From positions 2,430,366 through 2,494,365 of the forward strand of contig OX463846.1 of NCBI GenBank assembly GCA_949825065.1: a stretch of 64,000 nucleotides of DNA. The letters are read 5' to 3'. Position numbers and translations under genes: made by a program. Of the stretch, positions 4,700-53,070 are shown piece after piece. The number at the start of each line of letters is the position of its first letter. The stretch's first letter is position 1. The stretch comes from Odontocerum albicorne (lineage: Eukaryota > Arthropoda > Insecta > Trichoptera > Odontoceridae). The notes under the pieces are model-generated. The model was not told the DNA's origin, ran no database searches, and saw nothing but the letters and a program-made list of their open reading frames with translations.

Positions 4700-6640
4700 T
4701 ATTTTAGTAGTAAAACCCTTAAATGTTTTTTTTAAGTTAGTATAATTGGTATAGTGTTTTTATGTACATATTTAAATGTGTCGCAAGCTGTGTTCTTGTG
4801 TTTCGTAATTACTTCAATAAATTTTATTTATTTACATAATGTGACATGGAGACAAGAAGGAATTTTTTTTTTCGCTTTTTTAATGTTTGCTAAATAAAGT
4901 TTGCTGAAAAAAGCCGAAAGGACGACCGTCGGTCCTTGAAACAGTTTCGCAAAAGGATGGATACTTTAAAATATATCATATGTCATCTGAATTTATGCTT
5001 TTCTGTAGCTTGTAAGCTTCTTAACATATTTTTAACACCCATTTTAAGCAACGATAAAATAGCACTGTATAAAAAATCTATGTAACGAAGGGTTGCAGCA
5101 GATCAATTTGTTAATTGCACCGTCAATAATTTGTTAATTGTACCGTCTTGAAATTTTGATCTCTACATCATTAAAATTTAAAGTTTGATTTGTCAAAACT
5201 GTTTGTTTACTAAATACCATAAATGAAATCAATGTCAGGCGTCGTCCATCCACACTAAGGATTACAATCCTATTAGATTACGAGGTAATGCAATATTAGT
5301 CTACTTTAAAGGTAACCCATAGAATAATCTTCTAATTCGAAATGAACTTGTTGAAAAAACCTACAGTTCTTTTGTTAATAAAATTACTAACGGCTTCAAC
5401 GTGGGCCAGGAACTTAATGACTCTCCCTTATAAATATTTAATGAAGGAACATAGTGTGATGCGTTCAAATAATTTCATGTATATTGTGTTCATAACTAAT
5501 GATTCTGTGTGCGAGTGTTTTTATCTCTTCACTTGCGGTAGTATGCCAATACTTGCAATGGCGAATCGTGAATTTCCTGCCGACTTGAGTGTTGTTAAAT
5601 CTGAATGCTTGACTACGGAGGCCAAATACTACATTGTCTTCCAGTCATACTCAACAATATGTTTAAATAACGATTTCAGGTTATAATGGAGGGTGCCATT
5701 CGAAAAAAGAACTCAATAATTTGTTAATTGTACCATCTATAGATATCAGGTTTCTTGTCCTGACAACCTGATGTGATGCAAAAAATATACCTTTAAAACC
5801 AGCCTATGGCAGGTAAAGATATCTTATTTATTTTATTTTCCACCAATCAGAGAATGTAAGGATACCAGTATCTCTTAAGAAATACGTCAGAGTCGAGAGG
5901 TCTGCTTAATGAAATAATTATTATATTCTAGTTAAATTAATTCATCTGTAATTGAAAAATTAAATATTTCTCCGTATCACGAATATCCTTAATTATATAA
6001 AACGACTAAAAGGTTTTAATTATGCACTAATTATAATCAAACCATCTAGAAATCTTTAAAATTATTTTCAAAAATCTTTCAATTAAAATGAAAAACGTTA
6101 TAATTTTTTTCCATTATATTCTAAGAACAAACGATTTTTATTGTAGTAACAATATTTTCAAGTCATGTTTCTTGAAATAAATTAACATATTTTTCATTTA
6201 GATTTTAAAATGTTTAACAAATTGATCTGCAAGAACCATTCCGTTTTCTCACCAGCTTTTCAAAGGCCAGAGAGCTGTCTTGTAGCAAAAAGGGCGATGG
6301 GGTCAGGAATATTCAGGTAAAAATACCCTTCTTAACCTTGGTTCCACAAAAGAAACCTGTCCTAACGAATTGTGCCTGTCATATGTAGGATAAAAATAGG
6401 CCACTGTTTGATAAGAAGCTACCTTTATAAAATCCATATAAAAGAACACCCTTAATGTATGTGTGAAATGGACGAGGAAACCCTCGACTATGTTTTGTTT
6501 GAGTATCCTCTGCGCACCGCATATGTTATAATTTTAACTCAATCGTGAATGCACCTCGTCCATTCAAGATGCCCCACATAATCCCACTGAATTCTCCATA
6601 AAATTATAGTTACATATCTGAATTGAAAACTCTTTCAATT
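4700..6640. other. No supported gene; AT-rich
   Basis: The open frame at 5342-5686 (114 codons) has no recognisable domain and I do not support it as a gene. The motif AATTTGTTAATTG(C/T)ACC occurs at about 5112, 5132 and 5714, so the intervening segment may have inserted into or been duplicated with it. A second possible LINE-type tail, TTCAATAAATTTTATTTATT, is at 4812-4835. Confidence 0.4.
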
Positions 6641-6699
6641 TTAGTTTCTTACATATTGTAATTTTTTTTTAACAAACACTGTTTATTCCACTTTTTTAT

Positions 6700-6744
6700 G
6701 ACGGTATAACCCTACCGGTTTCAAGGCTTTCACCTCATCTTCAG
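6700..6744 (-). ncRNA. Hammerhead-like ribozyme motif in PLE terminus
   Basis: Read on the minus strand: CTGAAGA, T, GAGG-TGAAAG-CCTT (stem II), GAAA, ACCGGTA...TACCGT (stem III with one bulged C), then the cleavage-type triplet GTC. These are the invariant CUGANGA, GAAA and NUH core elements in hammerhead order. A convincing stem I is not obvious, and there is an extra T before stem II, so activity is uncertain. Confidence 0.5.
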
Positions 6745-6796
6745 GGGAGCGTAAACAAGACTAAATGCTGTTCGGACTGGCACCGATATAGACACT

Positions 6797-7497
6797 TCAA
6801 CGGATGGAGGCGGGAGGGGTGAGAGGAAGGCTAGGTATAATTTCGGCCAAGAGCGGGGAGATTTTGGGGAAATAACTATTCAACAGATGCTCTGATCGGT
6901 ATACTGACTTAGAAATTTCTAGGGCCTCTAATCTGTCCAATCTATTTCCGTTGCCGCTAATATGTAAGAATTTGGCATCATCGATAGAAAAAGTATGATT
7001 CTCACGGTGACAATGATTAGCCATTTCAGAATAAATTAGAGGATTTGTTAAAGCAGATTGGTGTTCACGAAATCTCTTTTCAAAAGATCTTCCTGTCTTT
7101 CCTATATAAAAATTATCACAGTCAGCACATAAAAGTTTATACACACCGCTGTTGTTAAGTATTCCATTTTTGCCTTTCCCATTAAATAAGAGTTTCCGGA
7201 GATTAAAGTTAGTGTAAAAAGCTGGCTTTATGTGACTTGGAATATTTTTGGTTACTTCATTTGATATATTTTTTATAAATAGGACTTTGCTCCATTTATA
7301 GGTATGCTTATAGGTGTCGTTAAATATATAATCTTTTATAAGTTTCTTTTTTGTTTTGTTTTTTAAAAGTGAATCAATGAGGCTTCCAGGATAGCCATTA
7401 TTTGTAGCAATTTTTTTGATGGTTATTAATTCCTTTTTACTTTCTTTAAAATTTTTATTGGCACAAATAATCCTCTTTATATGATAGAATGCCTAAT
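6797..7497 (-). pseudogene. PLE GIY-YIG endonuclease domain with upstream linker
   Basis: From about 7497 down to 6797 the minus strand is one open frame. It starts after a TAG and includes KRIICANKNFKESKKELITI, YPGSLIDSLLKNKTKKKLIK and PSHIKPAFYTNFNLRKLLF. It then enters the nuclease: SGVYKLLCADCDNFYIGKTG, RSFEKRFREHQSALTNPLIY, ANHCHRENHTFSIDDAKFL and LDRLEALEISKS. GVY...YIG, the following conserved R (GRSFEKRFREH), and the E in the LEALEI helix are the GIY-YIG catalytic signature. In Penelope-like elements this enzyme nicks the target DNA to prime reverse transcription. The CxxC pair in CADC also fits Penelope-type GIY-YIG domains. The domain itself carries no stop in this copy, but the element has lost its 5' reverse transcriptase. 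Confidence 0.87.
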
Positions 7498-12985: not shown

Positions 12986-14205
12986 GAGTGATTCAATGGT
13001 AGTCATATTTATTCACAATTTTTTGTCTGTGATTTAATAGTTGTCATAATAATTCCCAAATTTTGGTTTGCGATTCAATGGTAGTCATATTTTATTCATA
13101 ATTTTATGTCTGTGATTTAATAATTGTCATATTCATTCCCAAATTTTGTCTGTGATTCAATAGTAGTCATATTTATTCACAATTTTTTGTCTGTGATTTA
13201 ATAGTTGTCATAATAATTCCCAAATTTTTGTTTGTGATTCAATGGTAGTCATATTTATTCACATTTTTTTGTCTGTGATTTAAAAGCTGTCATATGAATT
13301 CCCAAATTTTGTCTGTGATTCAATAGTTGTCATATTTATTCCCAAATTTTTGTTTGTGATTTAATAGTTGTCACATTAATTCCCAAATTTTGTCTGTGAT
13401 TCAAAAGTAGTCATATTTATTCCCAATTTTTTGTCTGTGATTCAATGGTAGTCATATTAATTCCTAAATTCTTGTCTGTGATTCAATGGTAGACCTATTT
13501 ATTCCCAAATTTTTGTCTGTGATTATATAGTTGTCATATTTATTCCCAAATTTTTGTCTGTGATTCAATGGTAGTCATATTTATTCCCAAATTTTTGTCT
13601 GTTATTTAATGGTTGTCATATTAATTCCATATTTTTTGTCTGTGATTCAATGGTAGTCATATTAATTCCCAATTTTTTGTCTGTAATTCAATGGTAGTCA
13701 TATTAATTCCCCAATTTTTGTCTGTCATTCAATGGTAGTCATATTAATTCCCAATTTTTTGTCTGTGATTTAATAGTTGTCATATTTATTCCCAAATTTT
13801 TGTCTGTGATTCAATGGTAGTCATATTTATTCCCAAATTATTGTCTGGTATTTAATAGTTGTCATATTAATTGCCTATTTTTTGTCTGTGATTCACAGAC
13901 AAATTTATTCCCAGGTAGTCATATTTATTCACAAATTTTTGTCTGTGATTCAATGGTAGTCATATTGGTTCACAAATTTTTGTATGTAATTTAATAGTTG
14001 TCATATTTAATCCCAATTTTTTTTCTGTGATTCAATGATAGTCATATTTATCCCCAAATTTTTGTCTGTGAATCAATGGTAGTCATATTTATTCCCAAAT
14101 TTTTGTCTGTTATTTAATAGCTGTCATATTAATTCCCTATTTATTTGTCTGTGATTCACAGACAAATTTATTCCCAGGTAGTCATATTTTTTCACAAATT
14201 TTACA
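12986..14205. repeat. 41-bp AT-rich minisatellite, about 30 copies
   Basis: The unit is roughly TTTTTGTCTGTGATTCAATG plus GTAGTCATATTTATTCCCAAA. Successive ATTCCCAAA anchors at 13501, 13542 and 13583 give a 41-bp period. Two monomer types alternate loosely: GATTCAATGGTAGTC and GATTTAATAGTTGTC. A distinctive rearranged variant, GTGATTCACAGACAAATTTA, occurs twice, at about 13888 and 14151. This indicates block duplication of around 263 bp. Confidence 0.92.
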
Positions 14206-18108: not shown

Positions 18109-18153
18109 CTGATGATGAGGTGAAAGCCTTGAAACCGGTAGGGGGATACCGTT
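18109..18153 (+). ncRNA. Hammerhead-like ribozyme motif in PLE terminus
   Basis: CTGATGA, T, GAGG-TGAAAG-CCTT, GAAA, ACCGGTA-loop-TACCGT, and GTT as the NUH triplet. This copy has U at the free N7 position where others have A, which is allowed in CUGANGA. The stem III arms are preserved although the loop differs from other copies. Confidence 0.5.
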
Positions 18154-23000: not shown

Positions 23001-24149
23001 TATAGCACAATAGACCACATTCAGGTAGTAAAGGAAATAATAGAGCGTTGTCAAGAATACCAACTTCCACTATATTTGGCGTTCGTAGATTATGAAAAGG
23101 CTTTTGATTCGGTCAAGAAATCCGCTATTATCAGGGCCCTTCTTAATCAGGGAGTTCAAAAACGTTATGTCAATCTCTTCAGTAATATATACAATAACGC
23201 GACAGCAATAGTAAATCTCCACCAAAGTACCGATAAATTTCCAATCAGTAAAAGTGTCCGCCAGGGCGATACCATCTCGCCAAAATTATTCAACGCTACC
23301 CTGGAGGATGTGTTCAAAAAGCTTGAATGGGAAAATAAAGGAATCTGCGTTAATGGTTCATATCTGAGCCACCTTAGATTTGCAGACGATATTATTACCT
23401 TCGCTACACGTCCTGAGGAACTGCAGAGCCAAATACTGGAATTAGCAGAGGCAAGCAAATTAGCAGGTTTAAAAATGAATATTGATAAAACAAAATATAT
23501 GTTAAACCGCTTTGCTGATGCCACAACTATCCAGGTGGACGGTACACAGCTGGAACAAGTCCAACAATATATCTACTTAGGACAAAGTATTACATTTGAA
23601 GACTGTACTTTAAATGAAATTAATAGAAGATCAAAACTAGCTTGGAGTTCCTTTGGACGACTAAACTACATCTTCAAGAGCAAGCTCCCAATCTGCCTCA
23701 AACGGAAGGTATTTAACCAATGGATCTTGCCAGTGCTAACATATGGAAGCGAGACTTGGACTTTATCGGTACGAATGTTACAAAAGCTCCAAACAACACA
23801 ACGCAGCATGGAAAGGTGCATGCTAGGTTATACCAGAAGAGACCGAAAACGTAATGAGTGGATACGAGCCCAAACAAAGGTTGAAGATGTTATAGAGGTT
23901 GCGAAAAGACTCAAGTGGAAGTGGGCTGGACATATCGCCCGAGCAACAGACCATCGTTGGACGTATGAAGTAATCCAGTGGTACCCAATAGGTATAAAAA
24001 GGCCTGTAAGAAGACCTAAGGCGCGCTGGGTGGACGAAATACGTAAGCATGCAGGTATTATGTGGCAGCAATGTGCAAAGGACAGGATTTTGTGGAGACA
24101 ACTTGGAGAGGCCTACATCCTGCAGTGGATAGATACAGGCTTATGGTGA
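23001..24149 (+). CDS. RTE-like reverse transcriptase, C-terminal two thirds, frame intact
   Basis: The frame is open from the truncation point (YSTIDHIQVVKEIIERCQEY) to the TGA at 24147, about 382 residues; no ATG start belongs to it. Motifs in order: LAFVDYEKAFDSV (polymerase motif with the first metal-binding D), VRQGDTISPKLFN, HLRFADDIITFA (the FADD catalytic pair, at about 23379), AGLKMNIDKTKYM, QYIYLGQSI. Then come the C-terminal pieces LPVLTYGSETWTL, RRDRKRNEWIRAQTKVEDVI and WKWAGHIARATDHRW. In the full element this enzyme reverse-transcribes the RNA at a nicked target. The endonuclease domain that precedes it is missing. The absence of stops over 1.15 kb, in a window where other elements are riddled with them, points to a young insertion. 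It is not functional alone. Confidence 0.92.
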   Translation, partial: YSTIDHIQVVKEIIERCQEYQLPLYLAFVDYEKAFDSVKKSAIIRALLNQGVQKRYVNLFSNIYNNATAIVNLHQSTDKFPISKSVRQGDTISPKLFNATLEDVFKKLEWENKGICVNGSYLSHLRFADDIITFATRPEELQSQILELAEASKLAGLKMNIDKTKYMLNRFADATTIQVDGTQLEQVQQYIYLGQSITFEDCTLNEINRRSKLAWSSFGRLNYIFKSKLPICLKRKVFNQWILPVLTYGSETWTLSVRMLQKLQTTQRSMERCMLGYTRRDRKRNEWIRAQTKVEDVIEVAKRLKWKWAGHIARATDHRWTYEVIQWYPIGIKRPVRRPKARWVDEIRKHAGIMWQQCAKDRILWRQLGEAYILQWIDTGLW

Positions 24150-29559: not shown

Positions 29560-29805
29560 TAGTATTTATTGTAATTTATTTTTTATCAAACACTGTTTAT
29601 TTCACTTTTTTGTGACGGTATTACCCTACCGGTTTCAAGGCTTTCACCTCATCTTCAGGGGAGCGCAAACAAGACTCCCATGAAGATGAGGTGAAAGCCT
29701 TGAAACCGGTAGGGTTATACGGGAATAAACAGTGTTTGATAAAAATAAATTACAATGTCTTTAAACCTCCACAACGTTAATGCCTTAACTATAAATAGTA
29801 TTTAG
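29560..29805. mobile_element. PLE terminus as a head-to-head palindrome (decayed)
   Basis: Two copies of the PLE 3' terminus face each other: the left arm (TTTTATCAAACACTGTTTAT to GGGGAGCGCAAACAAGAC) and the right arm (GAAGATGAGGTGAAAGCCTT to CAGTGTTTGATAAAAATAAA), followed by the outer tail AAACCTCCACAACGTTAATG. The right arm has lost the CCGTCACAAAAAAGT part of stem III and stem I. No GIY-YIG sequence lies between them. Confidence 0.8.
29614..29658 (-). ncRNA. Hammerhead-like motif, left arm of the 29.6-kb palindrome
   Basis: On the minus strand: CTGAAGA, T, GAGG/CCTT stem II, GAAA, CCGGTA...TACCGT stem III (here with GGGTAA in the loop) and GTC. The partner on the plus strand begins ATGAAGA, lacking the first C-U pairing context, and is broken. 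Confidence 0.45.
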
Positions 29806-30537: not shown

Positions 30538-30582
30538 AACGGTATAACCCTACCGGTTTCAAGGCTTTCCCCTCATCTTCAG
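30538..30582 (-). ncRNA. Hammerhead-like motif in PLE copy at 30.5 kb
   Basis: CTGAAGA, T, GAGG-GGAAAG-CCTT, GAAA, ACCGGTA-GGGTTA-TACCGT and GTT on the minus strand. One base differs from other copies, in the stem II loop; the helices are unchanged. Confidence 0.5.
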
Positions 30583-37181: not shown

Positions 37182-37494
37182 ATATATTGTTATTTGTTTT
37201 ATCAAACTCTGTTTATTTTACTTTTTGTAACGGTATAACCCTTCCGGTTTCAAGACTTTCACCTCATCTTCAGGGGAGCACAACCAAGACTGAATTCTGT
37301 TCGAATTGGTACAGATATATACGCTCAACGGTTGGGGGCATTCGGGTTGGGGACTCAGGGCTGAGGGAGGCATGGGACGATTTTGGCCAGCAGTGGAGAG
37401 ATTTTTGGGATATATGTGTTAACCAGATGTTCGCCTCGAGGTACTGACTTAGAAATTTCTAGGACCTCTAATCTGTCCAATTTATTTTCGTTAC
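37182..37494 (-). mobile_element. PLE terminus and 3' region
   Basis: TTGTTTTATCAAACTCTGTT at 37194 begins the terminus. The hammerhead-like motif, the GGGGAGCACAACCAAGACTG spacer and the 3' region follow, ending with a small piece of the GIY-YIG frame (GTACTGACTTAGAAATTTCT at 37441). At 37495 it joins LINE-C. Confidence 0.8.
37229..37273 (-). ncRNA. Hammerhead-like motif in PLE copy at 37.2 kb
   Basis: CTGAAGA, T, GAGG-TGAAAG-TCTT, GAAA, ACCGGAA-loop-TACCGT and GTT on the minus strand. Changes within stem II (C to T) and stem III (GGTA to GGAA) weaken pairing compared with the other copies. Confidence 0.4.
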
Positions 37495-38171: not shown

Positions 38172-38909
38172 CTGGTTAGTCAAAAAGTTTTGAAAGCGGA
38201 AATGAAAATACATTTTCTTTGGGGAAAAATCACTTTTATTGCTCAGCATAGTCTCTCATAAGATAGTGATGAATCGACGCAGAAAATCCTTTTTATCCTT
38301 TCGAAATTGCTCCAAATGTTGCTCAGAAAGTCGCATTCGAACGTGTTTTTGTTGCATTGTTAGCAAATGCGGCACCCATTGTGCACACAGTTTTTTTGAA
38401 ACCCAAAACTTCAGCCAAAATATGCCATGTTGTTCCATGTGAGATGCCTATGGTGTCAGCTATCACATCCACAGTCGATCGATGATCTTCCAAAACCATA
38501 TCCTGTATTTTCGCTATGATTTCTGGTGTTGATGCACTTTTTGGACGTCCTGAGCGTGGATCGTCTTCAACGCTTGTACGGCCACGCTTAAACTCCAAAA
38601 CCCATTGGTGAAAGGTTGGAAATGAAGGAAAAGACTTCTTTAATACTTTCACCATCTTTGCATGGATCTCAGTAGCCGATAAACCTTCCAAAACAAAGAA
38701 TTTAATCACTGCACGATATTCGAATTTTTCCATTGTTAAAAAATACACTGACACGTCAACTTCAAATGGCTTGTAAACAAAGAATGAATTAACAGATCGA
38801 GATGAAATTTTGAGTACGTTCTTATGAAAGATGAAATATTAAAATGGCGTAGAAATTTTGGTTTTTCTACTGCTCCATAGATGTCGCTTTCAAAACGTTT
38901 TGACTAACC
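38172..38909 (-). mobile_element. mariner-like element nested in piggyBac, catalytic core deleted
   Basis: Inverted ends: GGTTAGTCAAAAAGTTTTGA (38174) and, from the right, GGTTAGTCAAAACGTTTTGA (38909 inward). TA lies at 38170-38171 and 38910-38911. Taking it out rejoins the piggyBac reading frame. It is the same family as 47727-48243. Confidence 0.88.
38256..38754 (-). pseudogene. mariner transposase, N-terminal domain only
   Basis: The first frame (38754 down) reads MEKFEYRAVIKFFVLEGLSA, TEIHAKMVKVLKKSFPSFPT, HQWVLEFKRGRTSVEDDPRS, GRPKSASTPEIIAKIQDMVL, EDHRSTVDVIADTIGISHGT and WHILAEVLGFKK. These are the two helix-turn-helix units of mariner transposase, joined by the GRP hinge. A frameshift near 38400 moves into the frame that continues CAQWVPHLLTMQQKHVRMRL, SEQHLEQFRKDKKDFLRRFI. 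The protein is then cut: the D..D..D catalytic block that should follow FLRRFIT is absent, and the 3' terminal sequence begins. It may act at most as a binding-domain fragment. Confidence 0.87.
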
Positions 38910-38911
38910 TA

Positions 38912-39800
38912 TTACATAATCCTATGCCACCATTTTATAGACCGACCAGTACCCTGAAAAATAGCATATTTTTCAGGGTACTGGTCAAATAAATCTACCC
39001 CGCCCATCATTTTATTGTATTTACATACTAAAAGTGAACAATAAATCGCTTCTTTTTTACCAGTTTTATTTTTTCTCAATATGGCTGTAGTACCACGGGG
39101 ATTATAAATTGTTGATAAAAAATTTACTGGTTTGTTGTCCATCCAGAGTATTGCAGCAAGTGGTCCTCTTATTTGGAATTCGAATTCACCTCTTTGTAAA
39201 ATTGTGTTACTTTTCAGAATAGAAACTGAGCCTTTTGTCGTTGTCCGGACAGTTCCGTTAGCAAAAATTCCCTTTGATATCAATTTCAGCAATTATTTGG
39301 AACTTGTGAAAAAGTATCGAAAACTACAACATGTACACTATAAGCTATGTTTTAAGTGAACTTCAACACAACCCTCTTACCTAATATGGATTCTTTACAC
39401 AATGGTGCGACACTTTTCCCTGTATATATAATATATCAAATTTTAGGATGTATCCCAAAGATGAATCTGCTATGCACCAGACTTTGTAGCCTCTTTTGAC
39501 CGGCTTCATAGGCATGTATTGCTTTAGTGAAGATCGCCCCTTGAATGTGATCATCGATTCATCAATAGAGAGATACGAAGATGGTGATATCATTTTCGCA
39601 CAGTTATCATTCAACTTGTCGATAAGGGGTCGTATCTTATGAAGCTTGTCGTGTTCGGGATTTTTTCGATCTGTATTTTTCTCGTTATCGTTAACGTGTA
39701 AATTATCTACCAGGTTTTTGAAGCGGTTTGTAGTCATTACTTCTGAAACAACACCTTGAATCGGATCAGAACTCCAATAATTTTTGAGATCCCCATTCAA
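38912..39800 (-). pseudogene. piggyBac transposase, catalytic domain, one frameshift
   Basis: The frame at 39800-39381 reads NGDLKNYWSSDPIQGVVSEV, NRFKNLVDNLHVNDNEK, DKLHKIRPLIDKLNDNCAKM, YLSIDESMITFKGRSSLKQY, MPMKPVKRGYKVWCIADSS. IDESMI.FKGR.....Y.P.KP.K.G.K is the piggyBac core, with the first catalytic D in the IDE motif. VVVFDTF at about 39325 holds the second D, just before a frameshift. The frame from 39292 continues LKLISKGIFANGTVRTTTKG, VNFLSTIYNPRGTTAILRKN, KYNKMMGGVDLFDQYPEKYA and SIKWWHRIM, with the third D in GGVD. All three acidic residues survive; the frameshift and the nested mariner inactivate the gene. Fragments upstream (39970-39870, e.g. LKIRDIGNEAPS) may be decayed N-terminal sequence. 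Confidence 0.85.
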
Positions 39801-40149: not shown

Positions 40150-43100
40150 TTTTGGTCAAGGCGTTTACCTTGCTGAGAGTGCATTGTGTTTATTTTGGTA
40201 AAGGCAGTTTACCTTGCTGAGAGTGCATTGTATACATTTTGGTCAAGGCAGTTTACCGTGCTGAGAGCATTTTGTATATTTAGGTCAAGGCAGTTTACCT
40301 TGCTGAGAGTGCATTGTGTGTATTTTGGTCAAGGCAGTTTACCTTGCTGAGAGTGCATTGTGTGTATTTTGGTCAAGGCAGTTTACCTTGCTGAAAGTGC
40401 ATTGTGTATATTTTGGTTAAAGTAGTTTACCTTGCTGAGAGTGCATTGTGTATATTTTCGTCAAGGCAGTTTACCATGCTGAGAGTGCATTGTGTATATT
40501 TTGGTCAAAGTAGTTTACCTTGCTGAGAGTGCATTGTGTATATTTTGGTCAAAGTAGTTTACCTTGCTGAGAGTGCATTGTGTATATTTTGGTCAAGGCA
40601 GTTTACCTTGCTGAGAGTGCATTGTGTATATTTTGGTCAGAGTAGTTTACCTTGCTGAGAGTGCATTGTATATATTTTGGTCAAGGCAGTTTACCTTGCT
40701 GAGAGCATTTTGTATATTTTGGTCAAGGCAGTTTACCTTGCTGAAAGTGCAATGTGTATATTTTGGTTAAAGTAGTTTACCTTGCTGAGAGTGCATTGTG
40801 TATATTTTGGTCAAGGCAGTTAACCTTGCTGAGAGTGCATGGTGTATATTTTGGTCAAGGCAGTTTACCTTGCTGAGAGTGCATTGTGTATATTTTGGTC
40901 AGAGTAGTTTACCTTGCTGAGAGTGCATTGTATATATTTTGGTCAAGGCAGTTTACCTTGCTGAGAGCATTTTGTATATTTTGGTCAAGGCAGTTTACCT
41001 TGCTGAAAGTGCAATGTGTATATTTTGGTTAAAGTAGTTTACCTTGCTGAGAGTGCATTGTGTATATTTTCGTCAAGGCAGTTTACCATGCTGAGAGTGC
41101 ATTGTGTATATTTTGGTCAAAGTAGTTTACCTTGCTGAGAGTGCATTGTGTATATTTTGGTCAAAGTAGTTTACCTTGCTGAGAGTGCATTGTGTATATT
41201 TTGGTCAAGGCAGTTTACCTTGCTGAGAGTGCATTGTGTATATTTTGGTCAGAGTAGTTTACCTTGCTGAGAGTGCATTGTATATATTTTGGTCAAGGCA
41301 GTTTACCTTGCTGAGAGCATTTTGTATATTTTGGTCAAGGCAGTTTACCTTGCTGAAAGTGCAATGTGTATATTTTGGTTAAAGTAGTTTACCTTGCTGA
41401 GAGTGCATGGTGTATATTTTGGTCAAGGCAGTTTACCTTGCTGAGAGTGCATTGTGTATATTTTGGTCAAGGCAGTTTACCTTGCTGAGAGTGCATTGTG
41501 TATATTTTGGTCAAAGTAGTTTACCTTGCTGAGAGTGCATTGTGTATATTTTGGTCAAAGTAGTTTACCTTGCTGAGAGTGCATTGTGTATATTTTGGTC
41601 AGAGTAGTTTACCTTGCTGAGAGTGCATTGTGTATATTTTGGTCAGAGTAATTTACCTTGCTGAGAGTGCATTGTGTATATTTTGGTCAAAGTAGTTTAC
41701 CTTGCTGAGAGTGCATTGTGTATATTTTGGTCAGAGTAGTTTACCTTGCTGAGAGTGCATTGTGTAAATTTTGGTCAGAGTAGTTTACCTTGCTGAGAGT
41801 GCATTGTGTATATTTAGGTCAAAGTAGTTTACCTTGCTGAGAGTGCATTGTATATATTTTGGTCAAGGCAGTTTACCTTGCTGAGAGCATTTTGTATATT
41901 TTGGTCAAGGCAGTTTACCTTGCTGAAAGTGTATTGTGTATATTTTGGTTAAAGTAGTTTACCTTGCTGAGAGTGCATTGTGTATATTTTGATCAAGGCA
42001 GTTTACCTTGCTGAGAGTGCATGGTGTATATTTTGGTCAAGGCAGTTTACCTTGCTGAGAGTGCATTGTGTATATTTTGGTCAAGGCAGTTTACCTTGCT
42101 GAGAGTGCATTGTGTATATTTTGGTCAAGGCAGTTTACCTTGCTCAGAGTGCATTGTGTATATTTTGGTCAAGGCAGTTTACCTTGCTGAGAGTGCATTG
42201 TATATATTTTGGTCAAGGCAGTTTACCGTACTGAGAGCATTTTGTATATTTAGGTCAAGGCAGTTTACCTTGCTGAGAGTGCATTGTATACATTTTGGTC
42301 AAGGCAGTTTACCGTGCTGAGAGCATTTTGTATATTTAGGTCAAGGCAGTTTACCTTGCTGAGAGTGCATTGTGTGTATTTTGGTCAAGGCAGTTTACCT
42401 TGCTGAGAGTGCATTGTGTGTATTTTTGTCAAGGCAGTTTACCTTGCTCAGAGTGCATTGTGTTTATTTTGGTTAAGGCAGTTTACCTTGCTGAGAGTCC
42501 ATTGTATACATTTTGGTCAAGGCAGTTTACCGTGCTGAGAGCATTTTGTATATTTAGGTCAAGGCAGTTTACCTTGCTGAGAGTGCATTGTGTGTATTTT
42601 GGTCAAGGCAGTTTACCTTGCTGAGAATGCATTGTGTGTATTTTGGTCAAGGCAGTTTACCTTGCTGAGAGTGCATTGTGTGTATTTTGGTTAAGGAAGT
42701 TTACCTTGCTGAGAGTGCATTGTATATATTTTGGTCAAGGCAGTTTACCGTGCTGAGAACATTTTGTATATTTAGGTCAAGGCAGTTTACCTTGCTGAGA
42801 GTGCATTGTGTATATTTTGGTCAAGGCAGTTTACCTTGCTGAGAGTGCATTGTGTATATTTTGGTCAAGGCAGTTTACCTTGCTGAGAGTGCATTGTGTA
42901 TATTTTGATCAAGGCAGTTTACCTTGCTGAGAGTGCATTGTGTATATTTTGGTCAAGGCAGTTTACCTTGCTGAGAGTGCATTGTGTATATTTTGGTCAA
43001 GGCAGTTTACCTTGCTGAGAGTGCATTGTGTATATTTTGGTCAAGGCAGTTTACCTTGCTGAGAGTGCATTGTGTGTATTTTGGTTAAGGCAGTTTACCT

Positions 43101-43392
43101 TGCTGAGAGTGCATTGTGTATATTTTGGTCAAAGTAGTTTACCTTGCTGAGAGTGCATTGTGTATATTTTGGTCAAGGCAGTTTACCTTGCTGAGAGTGC
43201 ATTGTGTATATTTTGATCAAGGCAGTTTACCTTGCTGAGAGTGCATTGTGTATATTTTGGTCAAGGCAGTTTACCTTGCTGAGAGTGCATTGTGTATATT
43301 TTGGTCAAGGCAGTTTACCTTGCTGAGAGTGCATTGTGTATGTTTTGGTCAAGGCAGTTTATCTTGCTGAGAGTGCATTGTGTATATTTTTT
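40150..43392 (+). repeat. 44-bp satellite array, about 74 copies, with higher-order structure
   Basis: The unit is GGCAGTTTACCTTGCTGAGA plus GTGCATTGTGTATATTTTGG and TCAA (44 bp: anchors at 43221 and 43265). Variants include AGTAGTTT for GGCAGTTT, and a 42-bp monomer GAGAGCATTTTGTATATT. A marker variant, AAAGTGCAATGTGTATATTT, sits at 40745, 41007 and 41357, with a related one at 41927. The spacings 262, 350 and 570 equal 6, 8 and 13 units minus 2 bp, so blocks with one short monomer were duplicated. Since 44 is not a multiple of 3, any open frame cycles through three units and is incidental. Confidence 0.97.
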
Positions 43393-45355: not shown

Positions 45356-45405
45356 AATTTGTTGTAATTTATTTTTAACAAACACTGTTTATTCCACTTT
45401 TTTAT

Positions 45406-45450
45406 GACGGTATAACCCTACCGGTTTCAAGGCTTTCACCTCATCTTCAG
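45406..45450 (-). ncRNA. Hammerhead-like motif, left arm of the 45.4-kb palindrome
   Basis: Same core as 6700-6744, with GTC as the cleavage-type triplet. Confidence 0.5.
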
Positions 45451-45471
45451 GGGAGTCTTGTTTGTACTCCC

Positions 45472-45516
45472 CTGAAGATGAGGTGAAAGCCTTGAAACCG
45501 GTAGGGTTATACCGTC
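45472..45516 (+). ncRNA. Hammerhead-like motif, right arm of the 45.4-kb palindrome
   Basis: CTGAAGA, T, GAGG-TGAAAG-CCTT, GAAA, ACCGGTA-GGGTTA-TACCGT and GTC on the plus strand. It is an exact mirror of the left arm. Confidence 0.5.
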
Positions 45517-45609
45517 ATAAAAAAGTGGAATAAACAGTGTTTGTTAAAAATAAATAACAATGTCCTTAAACCTCCACAACGTTAATGCCTTAACTATAAA
45601 CAACAAATT

Positions 45610-50211: not shown

Positions 50212-51145
50212 CGAGGCGTATCCAGAAAGTAAGTGTACTGAGGCTCTCACGACCGGATGGATTTTATTTTCGACATGTTGGCTACACTTCCGTATAGCCT
50301 GACCCTTCCCCTCCGCAACGAGACCGGTTCGAGGTCAATACGTTGAGAAATGTCGACGCGACAACACGTTTTGTGAAAAATGTCAACTCAGTCTCCCGCC
50401 AAGTGCGAAATTTTGTAAAAAGGCAAGAGTTTTTGAGGCGCTGCAAACTCCATGGAGATGAATTTCTCCGCTCCGTCGTTACTGGAGATGAAACTTGGGT
50501 TGCACACTACACGCCTGAAAACAAAAGGCAGTCTCAACAGTGGCGTCACACCTCTTCACCCTCCACCAAAAAGTTCAAAACCACAATTTCAGCCAAGAAA
50601 ATCATGGCATCCGTATTTTGGGACTGTCAAGGCATAATTTTAATTGAATATATGCCTCAAGGGGAAACCATCAACTCTGCAAGATACTGTGAGACCTTAA
50701 AAACATTGCGGTGGGCGATTCAGAACAAGAGGAGAGGCATGCTGACAAAGGGAGTCTGTCTGCTGCATGACAATGCCAGACCACACACGGCCAACGCCAC
50801 GAAGGAACTGCTCGCCTCGTTTAAATGGGATGTCCTGAACCATCCCGCGCATTCCCCAGACCTAGCACCTTCAAATTACTATCTCTCTACCTCCTTGAAG
50901 CTGTACATGGGTGGAAAACGCTAAAGGAGGAGATGGAGAAGTGGACGGAGGGGTTGGCGGGAAACTACTTCGAGGAAGGCATCAAAAAGTTGATACCCCG
51001 CTTCACCACCTGCATTGAGAGGAATGGCGACTATGTCGAAAAATAGCTTACATATGTACTACGGTAATCACGTATTTTTTTTGTTTAAATAAAAAAAATT
51101 GTAACCTACAAAAATTCAGTACACTTAGTTTCTGGATATGCCTTG
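50212..51145 (+). mobile_element. mariner transposon, 5' portion of the gene deleted
   Basis: Ends CGAGGCGTATCCAGAAAGTA and, from the right, CAAGGCATATCCAGAAACTA are matched inverted repeats of about 30 bp, with TA at 50210-50211 and 51146-51147. At 934 bp it is about 350 bp short of a full mariner; the missing part is the N-terminal DNA-binding domain. It is a different family from the mariners at 1, 38172 and 47727. Confidence 0.9.
50343..51046 (+). pseudogene. mariner transposase catalytic domain, third D replaced by N
   Basis: The frame reads VKRQEFLRRCKLHGDEFLRS, VVTGDETWVAHYTPENKRQS, KIMASVFWDCQGIILIEYMP, RRGMLTKGVCLLHDNARPHT and HPAHSPDLAPSNYYLSTSLK. The first catalytic D is in TGDETW, the second in HDNARPH. 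The third of the DD34D triad should lie 34 residues further, in the APSDY position, and here it is N (APSNYY). The spacing is exactly right, so the residue itself is lost and the enzyme would be inactive. A stop at 50922 and a frame change follow. The C-terminus continues in another frame: LKEEMEKWTEGLAGNYFEEG, IKKLIPRFTTCIERNGDYVE, K and a stop at 51044. The N-terminal HTH domain is missing. Confidence 0.9.
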
Positions 51146-51382: not shown

Positions 51383-51384
51383 CT

Positions 51385-53070
51385 ATGGATAAGTATTTGC
51401 ACGTGTCTCTGAATCATTATCATTATCATATCTCAGATATTGGAATAATTAGTTACAAGAGATATCGAACTAGGGATAAGTATTTGCACGTGTTTCTGAA
51501 TCATTATCATATCTAAGATATTGGAAGAGTTAGTTACAAAAGATATCGAACTAGGGATATGTATTTGCACATGTTTCTGAATCATTATCATTATCATATC
51601 TCAGATATTGGTATAATTAGTTACAAGAGATATCGAACTAGGGACAAGTATTTGCACGTGTTTCTGAATTATTATCATATCTCAGAAAATGGAAGAGTTA
51701 GTTACAAGAGATATCGAACTAGGGATAAGTATTTGCACGTGTTTCTGAACCATTATCATTATCATATCTCAGATAATGGAAGAGTTAGTTACAAGAGATA
51801 TTAAACTAGGGATAAGTAACATATTTGCACATGTTTCTGAATCATTATCATATCTCAGATAATGGAAGGGTTAGTTACAAGAGATATCGAATTAGGGATA
51901 AGTATTTGCACGTCTTTCTGAATTATTATCATTATCATATCTCAGATAATGGAAGAGTTAGTTACAAGAGATATCAAACTAGGGATAAGTAACATATTTG
52001 CACGTGTTTCTGAATCATTATCATATCTCAGATAATGGAAGAGTTACAAGATATATCGAACGAGGGATCAGTATTTGCACGTGTTTCTGAACCATTATCA
52101 TTATCATATCTCAGATAATGGAAGATTTAGTTACAAGAGATATCGAACTAAGGATAAGTAACATATTTGCACGTGTTTCTGAATCATTGTCATTATCATA
52201 TCTCAGATAATGAAAGAGTTAGTTACAAGAGATATCAAACTAGGGATAAGTATTTGCACGTGTTTCTGAATTATTATCATATCTCAGATAATAGAAGAGT
52301 TAGTTACAAGAGATATCGAATTAGGGATAAGTATGTTTACGTGTTTCTGAATTATTATCATATCTCAGATAATGGAAGAGTTAGTTACAAGAGATATCGA
52401 ACTAGGGATAAGTTACATATTTGCACGTATTTCTGAATCATTGTCATATCTCAGATAATGAGAGAGTTAGTTACAAGAGATATCAAACTAGGGATAAGTA
52501 TTTGCACGTGTTTCTGAATTATTATCATATCTCAGATAATGGAAGAGTTAGTTACAAGAGATATCGAATTAGGGATAAGTATTTGTACGTGTTTCTGAAT
52601 TATTATCATATCTCAGATAATGGAAGAGTTAGTTACAAGAGATATCAAATTAGGGATAAGTATTTGCACGTGTTTCTGAATCATTGTCATTGTCATATCT
52701 CAGATAAGGAAAGAGTTAGTTACAAGAGATATCAAACTAGGGATAAGTATTTGCACGTGTTTCTGAATTATTATCATATCTCAGATAATGGAAGAGTTAG
52801 TTACAAGAGATATCGAACTAGGGATAAGTAACATATTTGCACGTGTTTCTGAATCATTATCATTGTCATATCTCAGATAATGGAAGGGTTAGTTATAAGA
52901 TATATCAAACTAGGGATAAGTATTTGCACGTGTTTCTGAATTATTATCATATCTCAGATAATGGAAGAGTTAGTTACAAGAGATATCAAACTAGGGATAA
53001 GTATTTGCACGTCTTTCTGAATCATTATCATTATCATATCTCAGATAATGGAAGAGTTACAAGATATATC
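51385..53070 (+). repeat. 81/87-bp minisatellite derived from LINE-A coding sequence
   Basis: About 20 units, each roughly GTATTTGCACGTGTTTCTGA, ATTATTATCATATCTCAGAT, AATGGAAGAGTTAGTTACAA, GAGATATCGAACTAGGGATA, A. The spacing is 81 bp (52501 to 52582), and 87 where TCATTA is duplicated; a further variant inserts ACATA near GGATAAGTAACATATTTGC. Because 81 and 87 are multiples of 3, long open frames with SDNGRVSYKRYRTRDKYL repeat. The last unit runs directly into LINE-A coding sequence (see 53055-53665). Confidence 0.95.

What the first reader, a model, noticed from the sequence alone, without database searches (positions are those of the whole stretch)
6700..6744. Hammerhead-like ribozyme core in the 3' terminus of a Penelope-like element
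The minus strand carries CTGAAGA, a short stem II, GAAA, a stem III with arms CGGTA/TACCG, and GTC, in hammerhead order. Hammerhead motifs are known in Penelope-like retroelements, but this version has an extra base before stem II, a bulged C in stem III and no clear stem I. It would therefore be an unusual or decayed variant. The core recurs in at least seven places in this window with NUH kept (GTC or GTT).
Basis: partly seen in the sequence, partly recalled or inferred. Interest (0 to 1): 0.8.

Follow-up and report, generated by a model that had tools for sequence, protein, structure and literature searches.

The report
Dimer-type hammerhead ribozymes in Penelope retroelements
A small RNA motif of the self-cutting hammerhead kind sits at the end of a very abundant Penelope-like jumping element; it fits an already described class that is thought to work as pairs of RNA copies, so it is a new member rather than a new kind.

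Summary
In detail: seven exact CTGANGA…GAAAC cores in the window against 0.76 expected, and 31,494 exact matches to a longer pattern genome-wide, none for the reversed control. PLE coding remnants lie within 250 nt upstream of 17 of 46 sampled cores. Two other families of this genome (3 and B) share CUGANGA–(U)–stem II–GAA–ACCGGU–H with different stems; a further one has ACACGUGU. That helix III is palindromic and can form only between two RNA copies, with stem I beside it. Pairs of this register covary (77.4% paired vs 56.2% shuffled, at most 46.6% slid). The 'extra base' completes an AUG, as in the anole PLE PAc (PMC11167929). This fits the published minimal, dimer-acting type I hammerheads of PLEs. 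Predicted cut: after A6713, not C6700. Activity is untested: the window family's stem I is 3 bp and energy models do not choose the strict active dimer. New member of a known kind.

The parts
6797..7492 (-). 5'-truncated PLE coding remnant, 231 aa stop to stop, C-terminal GIY-YIG endonuclease
   Evidence: PF01541 E 5e-5; 41% identity to a metagenomic protein P0001 with an RT domain
6745..6747 (-). proposed stem I, 5' strand (CCC, positions 2.1-2.3)
   Evidence: pairs with 6710-6712; first three stem I pairs formed in 76 of 84 cells of the family (28 rows), 48 or fewer when slid
6738..6744 (-). core C3-U4-G5-A6-N7-G8-A9 (CTGAAGA)
   Evidence: sequence; N7 is A, T, C or G among families
6736..6738 (-). 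ATG made by A9, the extra U (6737) and G10.1; followed by AGG TGA
   Evidence: sequence; extra U followed by G in 31,494 matches, another base in 2,651
6723..6736 (-). stem II GAGGU / GCCUU closed by a GAAA tetraloop (G10.1-U11.1 wobble)
   Evidence: stem II pairs covary among families
6720..6722 (-). core G12-A13-A14
6714..6719 (-). palindromic helix III ACCGGU (15.1-15.3 / 16.3-16.1), formed between two RNA copies
   Evidence: present with different stems I and II in families 3 and B, which were fetched by patterns that held it; another family has ACACGTGT
6713..6713 (-). H17 (A); predicted cleavage 3' of this base
   Evidence: H17 in 28 of 28 rows of the family and 13 of 14 of family B, all chosen for an intact palindrome
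6710..6712 (-). proposed stem I, 3' strand (GGG, 1.1-1.3)
   Evidence: as for 6745-6747
   Evidence: 21 of 28 in the family, 0 of 19 in others
18109..18141 (+). second core of the same family, behind PLE coding remnant
   Evidence: (E 3e-5)
29626..29658 (-). core; head-to-head with a C3-mutated copy at 29672-29719 (+)
30550..30582 (-). core, behind PLE coding remnant
37241..37273 (-). core with GGAA for GGTA (U16.1 lost), behind PLE coding remnant
   Evidence: (E 0.09)
45418..45450 (-). core, one half of a head-to-head pair
45472..45504 (+). core, other half of the head-to-head pair

Best explanation
The motif is a minimal type I hammerhead ribozyme of a Penelope-like element, of the class with a diminished helix III. 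Read 5'-CCC-CUGAAGA-(U)-GAGGU GAAA GCCUU-GAA-ACCGGU-A|GGG. Helix III is the palindrome ACCGGU and cannot close in one molecule; two copies (tandem terminal repeats in one transcript, or two transcripts) pair through it, each strand supplying a catalytic core to the other, and cleave after A17 (window base 6713). The likely use is to cut read-through transcripts of tandem or neighbouring PLE terminal repeats into units, perhaps helped by the PLE protein. The AUG laid over A9-U-G10.1 ties the ribozyme to the start of a reading frame, as in PAc. Shown here: motif, copy number, PLE context, covariation, palindrome, H17. Inferred: cleavage, dimer action, role in the element's cycle. The confidence given is for class and register; that the window's family still cuts I put at about 0.6.
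For: Cores exceed chance; 31,494 genomic matches, reversed control 0. Full descriptor (CUGANGA, stem II >=4 bp, GAA, A..U palindrome, H): 40 distinct in 295 kb of local sequence, 30 of its 45 sequences being pattern-selected loci; 3 in 20 shuffles together. Pair counts on 26 rows (20 from other families, 6 of this one and its close relative): 77.4% of cells paired vs 56.2 (sd 2.6) shuffled, 0 of 500; slid <=46.6%; cells with double change 61 vs 27.1. Stem II permutation, 51 distinct inserts: 108 of 153 vs 65.6 (sd 7.1), 0 of 5000; stem I, 31 distinct rows: 98 of 155 vs 78.3 (sd 5.05), 0 of 5000. A covariance model built without this family finds eight of the nine core-spanning window copies, seven at E 4e-6 to 0.003 and one at 0.09; chance-like matches begin at 0.22. 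A17 is nt 26 from the AUG; PMC11167929 states a cut 26 bp downstream of the PAc start codon. [quoted passage not shown]
Against: Stem I of the window's family is 3 bp; stem II closes with G-U, not G-C. Cofolding: helix III forms in trans in 30 of 40 rows, with stem II in 13, but the strict double hammerhead is the minimum-energy dimer in 0 of 40, while random flanks on the same core give it in 2 of 300; for this family it lies 3.4 kcal/mol above the dimer minimum, which slips stem I by one pair and uses C3 and U4. Two of five pair measures do not beat shuffles; the 21 stem II inserts outside families 1 and 3 do not either (441 of 5000), and only 9 of those 21 have four pairs from 10.1; family 3 has 3 of 6 and the lone L167 row 0 of 3 of the first stem I pairs. 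Rows within a family are related. The patterns that fetched families 3 and B already held the core, the U and the palindrome, so conservation of those letters is by selection. The model misses the 8.8-kb copy and gives L006 only E 2.8. No Rfam hammerhead match; own-genome RF00008 search empty, but its controls also rang nowhere.
Confidence: 0.85

Rival explanations
1. One reading: a monomeric hammerhead with stem III CGGTA/TACCG (bulged C) that cuts after GTC/GTT at 6700, with a distal stem I (TGTTTR/TAAACA).
For: Arm present in 21 of 28 family rows, 0.22 expected in shuffled flanks; GTC or GTT kept in 7 of 7 window cores.
Against: Arm in 0 of 19 rows of the other families; no pairing beside the cut site; bulge at 15.3; monomer energy -8.4 against a minimum of -13.7 kcal/mol for the 64-nt piece. 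Shared ancestry alone can explain the arm within one family.
Confidence: 0.06
2. A structured cis signal of PLE RNA (recognition by the PLE reverse transcriptase or translation start), descended from a hammerhead but no longer catalytic in this family. It shares class and register with the best explanation and differs only in activity.
For: Wobble G10.1-U11.1 and 3-bp stem I in a family that still spread widely; in PAc, ribozyme mutants did not change insertion in vitro (PMC11167929).
Against: Core letters C3-A9 (N7 free), G12-A14, A15.1-U16.1 and H17 are intact in 6 of the 9 core-spanning window copies, whereas stems differ between families with compensating changes.
Confidence: 0.25
3. Chance hammerhead-like letters in a repeat, copied many times.
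For: All nine core-spanning copies in the window are one family, so copy number alone proves nothing.
Against: Other families in the same genome share the architecture with different stems; the model from other families finds this one.
Confidence: 0.03

Closest known systems
Minimal type I hammerheads of Penelope-like elements (Cervera and De la Pena 2014; Luense, Weinberg and Breaker 2017; both papers not held, known here from titles in reference lists and from review passages)
   Same: PLE terminus, type I order, diminished helix III that needs a dimer, core letters
   Different: Helix III here is a 6-nt palindrome (8 nt in one further family); family-specific hairpin over the cut site; wobble 10.1-11.1 in the main family. 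Whether these differences are already in those papers could not be read
PAc hammerhead of the Anolis Poseidon element (PMC11167929)
   Same: AUG at the start of stem II, C3 and G8 before it, cut 26 nt downstream: the same spacing as here
   Different: PAc opens its ORF at that AUG; in the window family AUG AGG UGA stops after two codons. PAc cuts only with protein; untested here
Newt / amphibian satellite hammerheads (retrozymes)
   Same: Weak helix III, act as dimers (passages of PMC7229834)
   Different: Those have loop-loop contacts and small tandem repeats; here PLE coding remnants are the neighbours
Rfam hammerhead families (RF00008 and relatives)
   Same: Core letters (recalled)
   Different: No match in the window

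Membership tests
Minimal dimer-type PLE hammerhead | Core CUGANGA ... GAAA with A15.1-U16.1 and H17 | tested here: met
   Intact in 6 of 9 core-spanning window copies
Minimal dimer-type PLE hammerhead | Located at a Penelope-like element terminus | tested here: met
   GIY-YIG remnant ends 52 nt upstream; PLE C-terminal remnants within 250 nt of 17 of 46 cores
Minimal dimer-type PLE hammerhead | Helix III too short for a monomer, self-complementary | tested here: met
   ACCGGU palindrome; ACACGTGT in another family
Minimal dimer-type PLE hammerhead | Stems I and II supported by covariation | tested here: met
   (77.4% vs 56.2% shuffled; two of five measures not above shuffles); stem I weak in the window family (3 bp)
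Minimal dimer-type PLE hammerhead | Self-cleavage as a dimer | not testable with these tools
   Cofolding does not settle it: strict double hammerhead is the minimum in 0 of 40 rows
Canonical hammerhead (Rfam) | Score above an Rfam hammerhead model | tested here: not met
   0 matches over the window; none at E<=10 on 6500-6950
   0 of 19 rows outside the window's family
PAc-like PLE hammerhead | AUG over A9/G10.1 that opens the PLE ORF | tested here: inconclusive
   AUG present; stops after AUG AGG in this family; in 20 rows of other families the frame runs 3 to more than 34 codons, 22 in both family 3 copies of L168; no full-length element examined

The most novel reading that the evidence does not exclude
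The family-specific CGGUA/UACCG hairpin is a built-in switch: it hides half of the palindromic helix III and the cut site in a lone RNA, so that the ribozyme works only when two PLE copies (or the PLE protein) open it. A copy-sensing hammerhead would thus be present in tens of thousands of copies.
Probability: 0.08. Interest if true: 0.5.

Novelty: new member of a known kind. Interest (0 to 1): 0.27.

Why it matters
It corrects the register, and so the bond to test, for a motif with 31,494 exact pattern matches in one genome. It also gives several families in one genome (different stems, same core and a palindromic helix III) in which the still unknown role of PLE hammerheads can be tested. 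Rfam's models miss the class here, so it is easily overlooked in annotation.

Tried and rejected
Rfam scan of the window and of four other-family loci: no hammerhead; the miRNA-like matches in L165 and L168, all below gathering score, I take to come from inverted repeats. Scan of viral contigs with a loose pattern: 120 loci, 80 of them shown, judged by eye to be mostly chance and not studied. Protein search: one metagenomic relative among 270 candidates. The strict cofold test did not support the dimer by energy; a first energy evaluation was invalid because of notation and was redone for five of its six strings. One script failed on a comment line. Genome-wide tests of other helix III letters did not complete, so how many helix III palindromes exist is open.

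Full report
What is there. The window is a stretch of a 1.29-Gb genome. On the minus strand at 6744-6700 it reads CTGAAGA-T-GAGGTGAAAGCCTT-GAA-ACCGGT-A-GGG-TTA-TACCG-TC. Seven exact matches to CTGANGA-N4..30-GAAAC lie in the window, where shuffles give 0.76. BLAST with the family adds two core-spanning copies with a broken core and a tail fragment. The element is Penelope-like: a 231-aa frame with a GIY-YIG domain ends 52 nt before the core, and its only protein relative found, of 270 candidates, is a metagenomic protein with an RT domain. tblastn finds PLE C-terminal remnants within 250 nt upstream on the same strand of 17 of 46 distinct cores in the local sequence; most of that sequence's cores were fetched because they match the motif. 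The other 29 have no such remnant at E<=1e-3; several are members of inverted pairs.

Abundance. A pattern with an AUG over the core and GAAACCGGTNG after it has 15,816 + 15,678 exact matches in the genome and none for the reversed control. With another base in place of the extra U there are 1,263 + 1,388, control 0 + 2; the 100 places listed include deletions as well as substitutions. In 14 stretches of 10 kb taken without regard to content, the family core was seen ten times by exact pattern (L002 three times, L003, L005, L006, L007, L013, and L014 twice), besides one core of family 3 in L003.

Which register. I asked what stays constant when the stems change, and looked for other families in the same genome. 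Family 2 (GAGGU GUGC ACCUU) is a close relative with the same flanks. Clearly different are family 3 (GAAGAC GGNG GUCUUC), family B (GYUC N3-13 GAGC type, found among the 63 places; 51 distinct inserts, 30 of them family 1/3-like and 21 others), one lone copy with GAUA GUUA UAUC and a G at 17 (L167), and a family with GCCUC...GAGGC (L135 and L003). Families 1, 2, 3, B and L167 have ACCGGU, the last family ACACGUGU: palindromes that begin with A15.1 and end with U16.1. The patterns that fetched 3, B and L167 held the core, the U and ACCGGU, so those letters are selected; stem II, stem I and base 17 were free. Base 17 is H in 28 of 28 family 1/2 rows and 13 of 14 family B rows.

Covariation. With CUGANGA...ACCGGU as anchors, stem I is the bases directly before C3 and directly after base 17. 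The family B consensus pairs CCAUU with AAUGG (5 bp), this family CCC with GGG (3 bp), family 3 only two of five. On 26 aligned rows (20 from other families, 6 of this one and its close relative) 77.4% of cells are standard pairs, against 56.2 (sd 2.6) shuffled and 31.6-46.6 slid; cells changed on both sides 61 against 27.1; covariation score 0.609 against 0.274; the number of pairs with double change and of further pair types do not beat shuffles. Permutations: stem II 108 of 153 against 65.6 (51 distinct inserts), but 47 of 63 against 43.5 when only the 21 inserts outside families 1 and 3 are used, of which 9 have four pairs from 10.1; stem I 98 of 155 against 78.3 (31 distinct rows). A covariance model built from the 20 other-family rows finds eight of the nine core-spanning copies in the window (E 4e-6 to 0.09) and ten copies of the family in the 14 random stretches up to E 0.0015; it misses the copy at 8.8 kb and gives L006 only E 2.8, and matches without the motif begin at E 0.22.

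The extra base. A9, the extra U and G10.1 spell AUG. [quoted passage not shown] here A17 is nucleotide 26 from the AUG. PMC3846280 (passages) says of one rotifer PLE that its pseudo-LTR includes the first 12 codons of the ORF, 22 with the tail. In this family AUG AGG UGA stops at once; both family 3 copies of L168 are open for 22 codons, and 20 other-family rows range from 3 to more than 34. I did not examine a full-length element.

Mechanism. Helix III cannot close in one molecule, so cleavage needs two copies. That is the class described in PMC7761336, PMC7229834 and PMC6155905 (passages only) and named in the title of Luense et al. 2017 (not held, title seen in reference lists). Energies are lukewarm: helix III in trans in 30 of 40 rows, plus stem II in 13, strict double hammerhead 0 of 40, random flanks 2 of 300. 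For this family the strict dimer is -23.3, the dimer minimum -26.7 (stem I slipped by one pair) and two monomers -20.0 kcal/mol. Hence I am confident of the class and less of activity in this family. In PAc, cleavage needed the protein and was not needed for insertion in vitro, so the role in the cycle remains open.

A remark on G10.1-U11.1. CCUUGAAAC is what CpG decay of CCUCGAAAC would give, and both forms occur. That is inference from the letters only.

Verdict. Further families of a known kind; the hairpin over the cut site is the one feature I cannot match to what I could read.

Noticed in passing
window 45362-45561; 29567-29756; L002 5534-5742; L165; L168: Cores often stand in head-to-head inverted pairs, many with about 20-50 nt between them, some up to about 220. 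Of 58 genomic places listed first (C1 up to 1,566,466), 8 neighbours within 300 nt are (-,+) and none (+,-), where 0.67 neighbours are expected. PMC3846280 passages describe head-to-head inverted pLTRs with palindromes for PLEs.
   Followed up: partly
L135 2377 (-), L003 8668 (+): A separate hammerhead-like family with palindrome ACACGTGT, without the extra U; L135 has a GCCTC/GAGGC stem II, L003 a decayed one.
   Followed up: partly
window 23076-24149 (+): Reverse transcriptase fragment, PF00078 E 2.7e-20.
   Followed up: no
window 38323-38754 (-) and 50343-50924 (+): Mariner/Mos1-type transposase fragments (PF17906; PF01359).
   Followed up: no
window 38912-39292 and 39381-39800 (-): Two DDE_Tnp_1_7 transposase fragments (PF13843); the name piggyBac-like is recalled.
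   Followed up: no
window 40150-43390: Satellite array, 44-bp unit, 74 copies.
   Followed up: no
window 51383-53059 and 12988-14158: Tandem arrays with 81/168-bp and 41-bp units.
   Followed up: no
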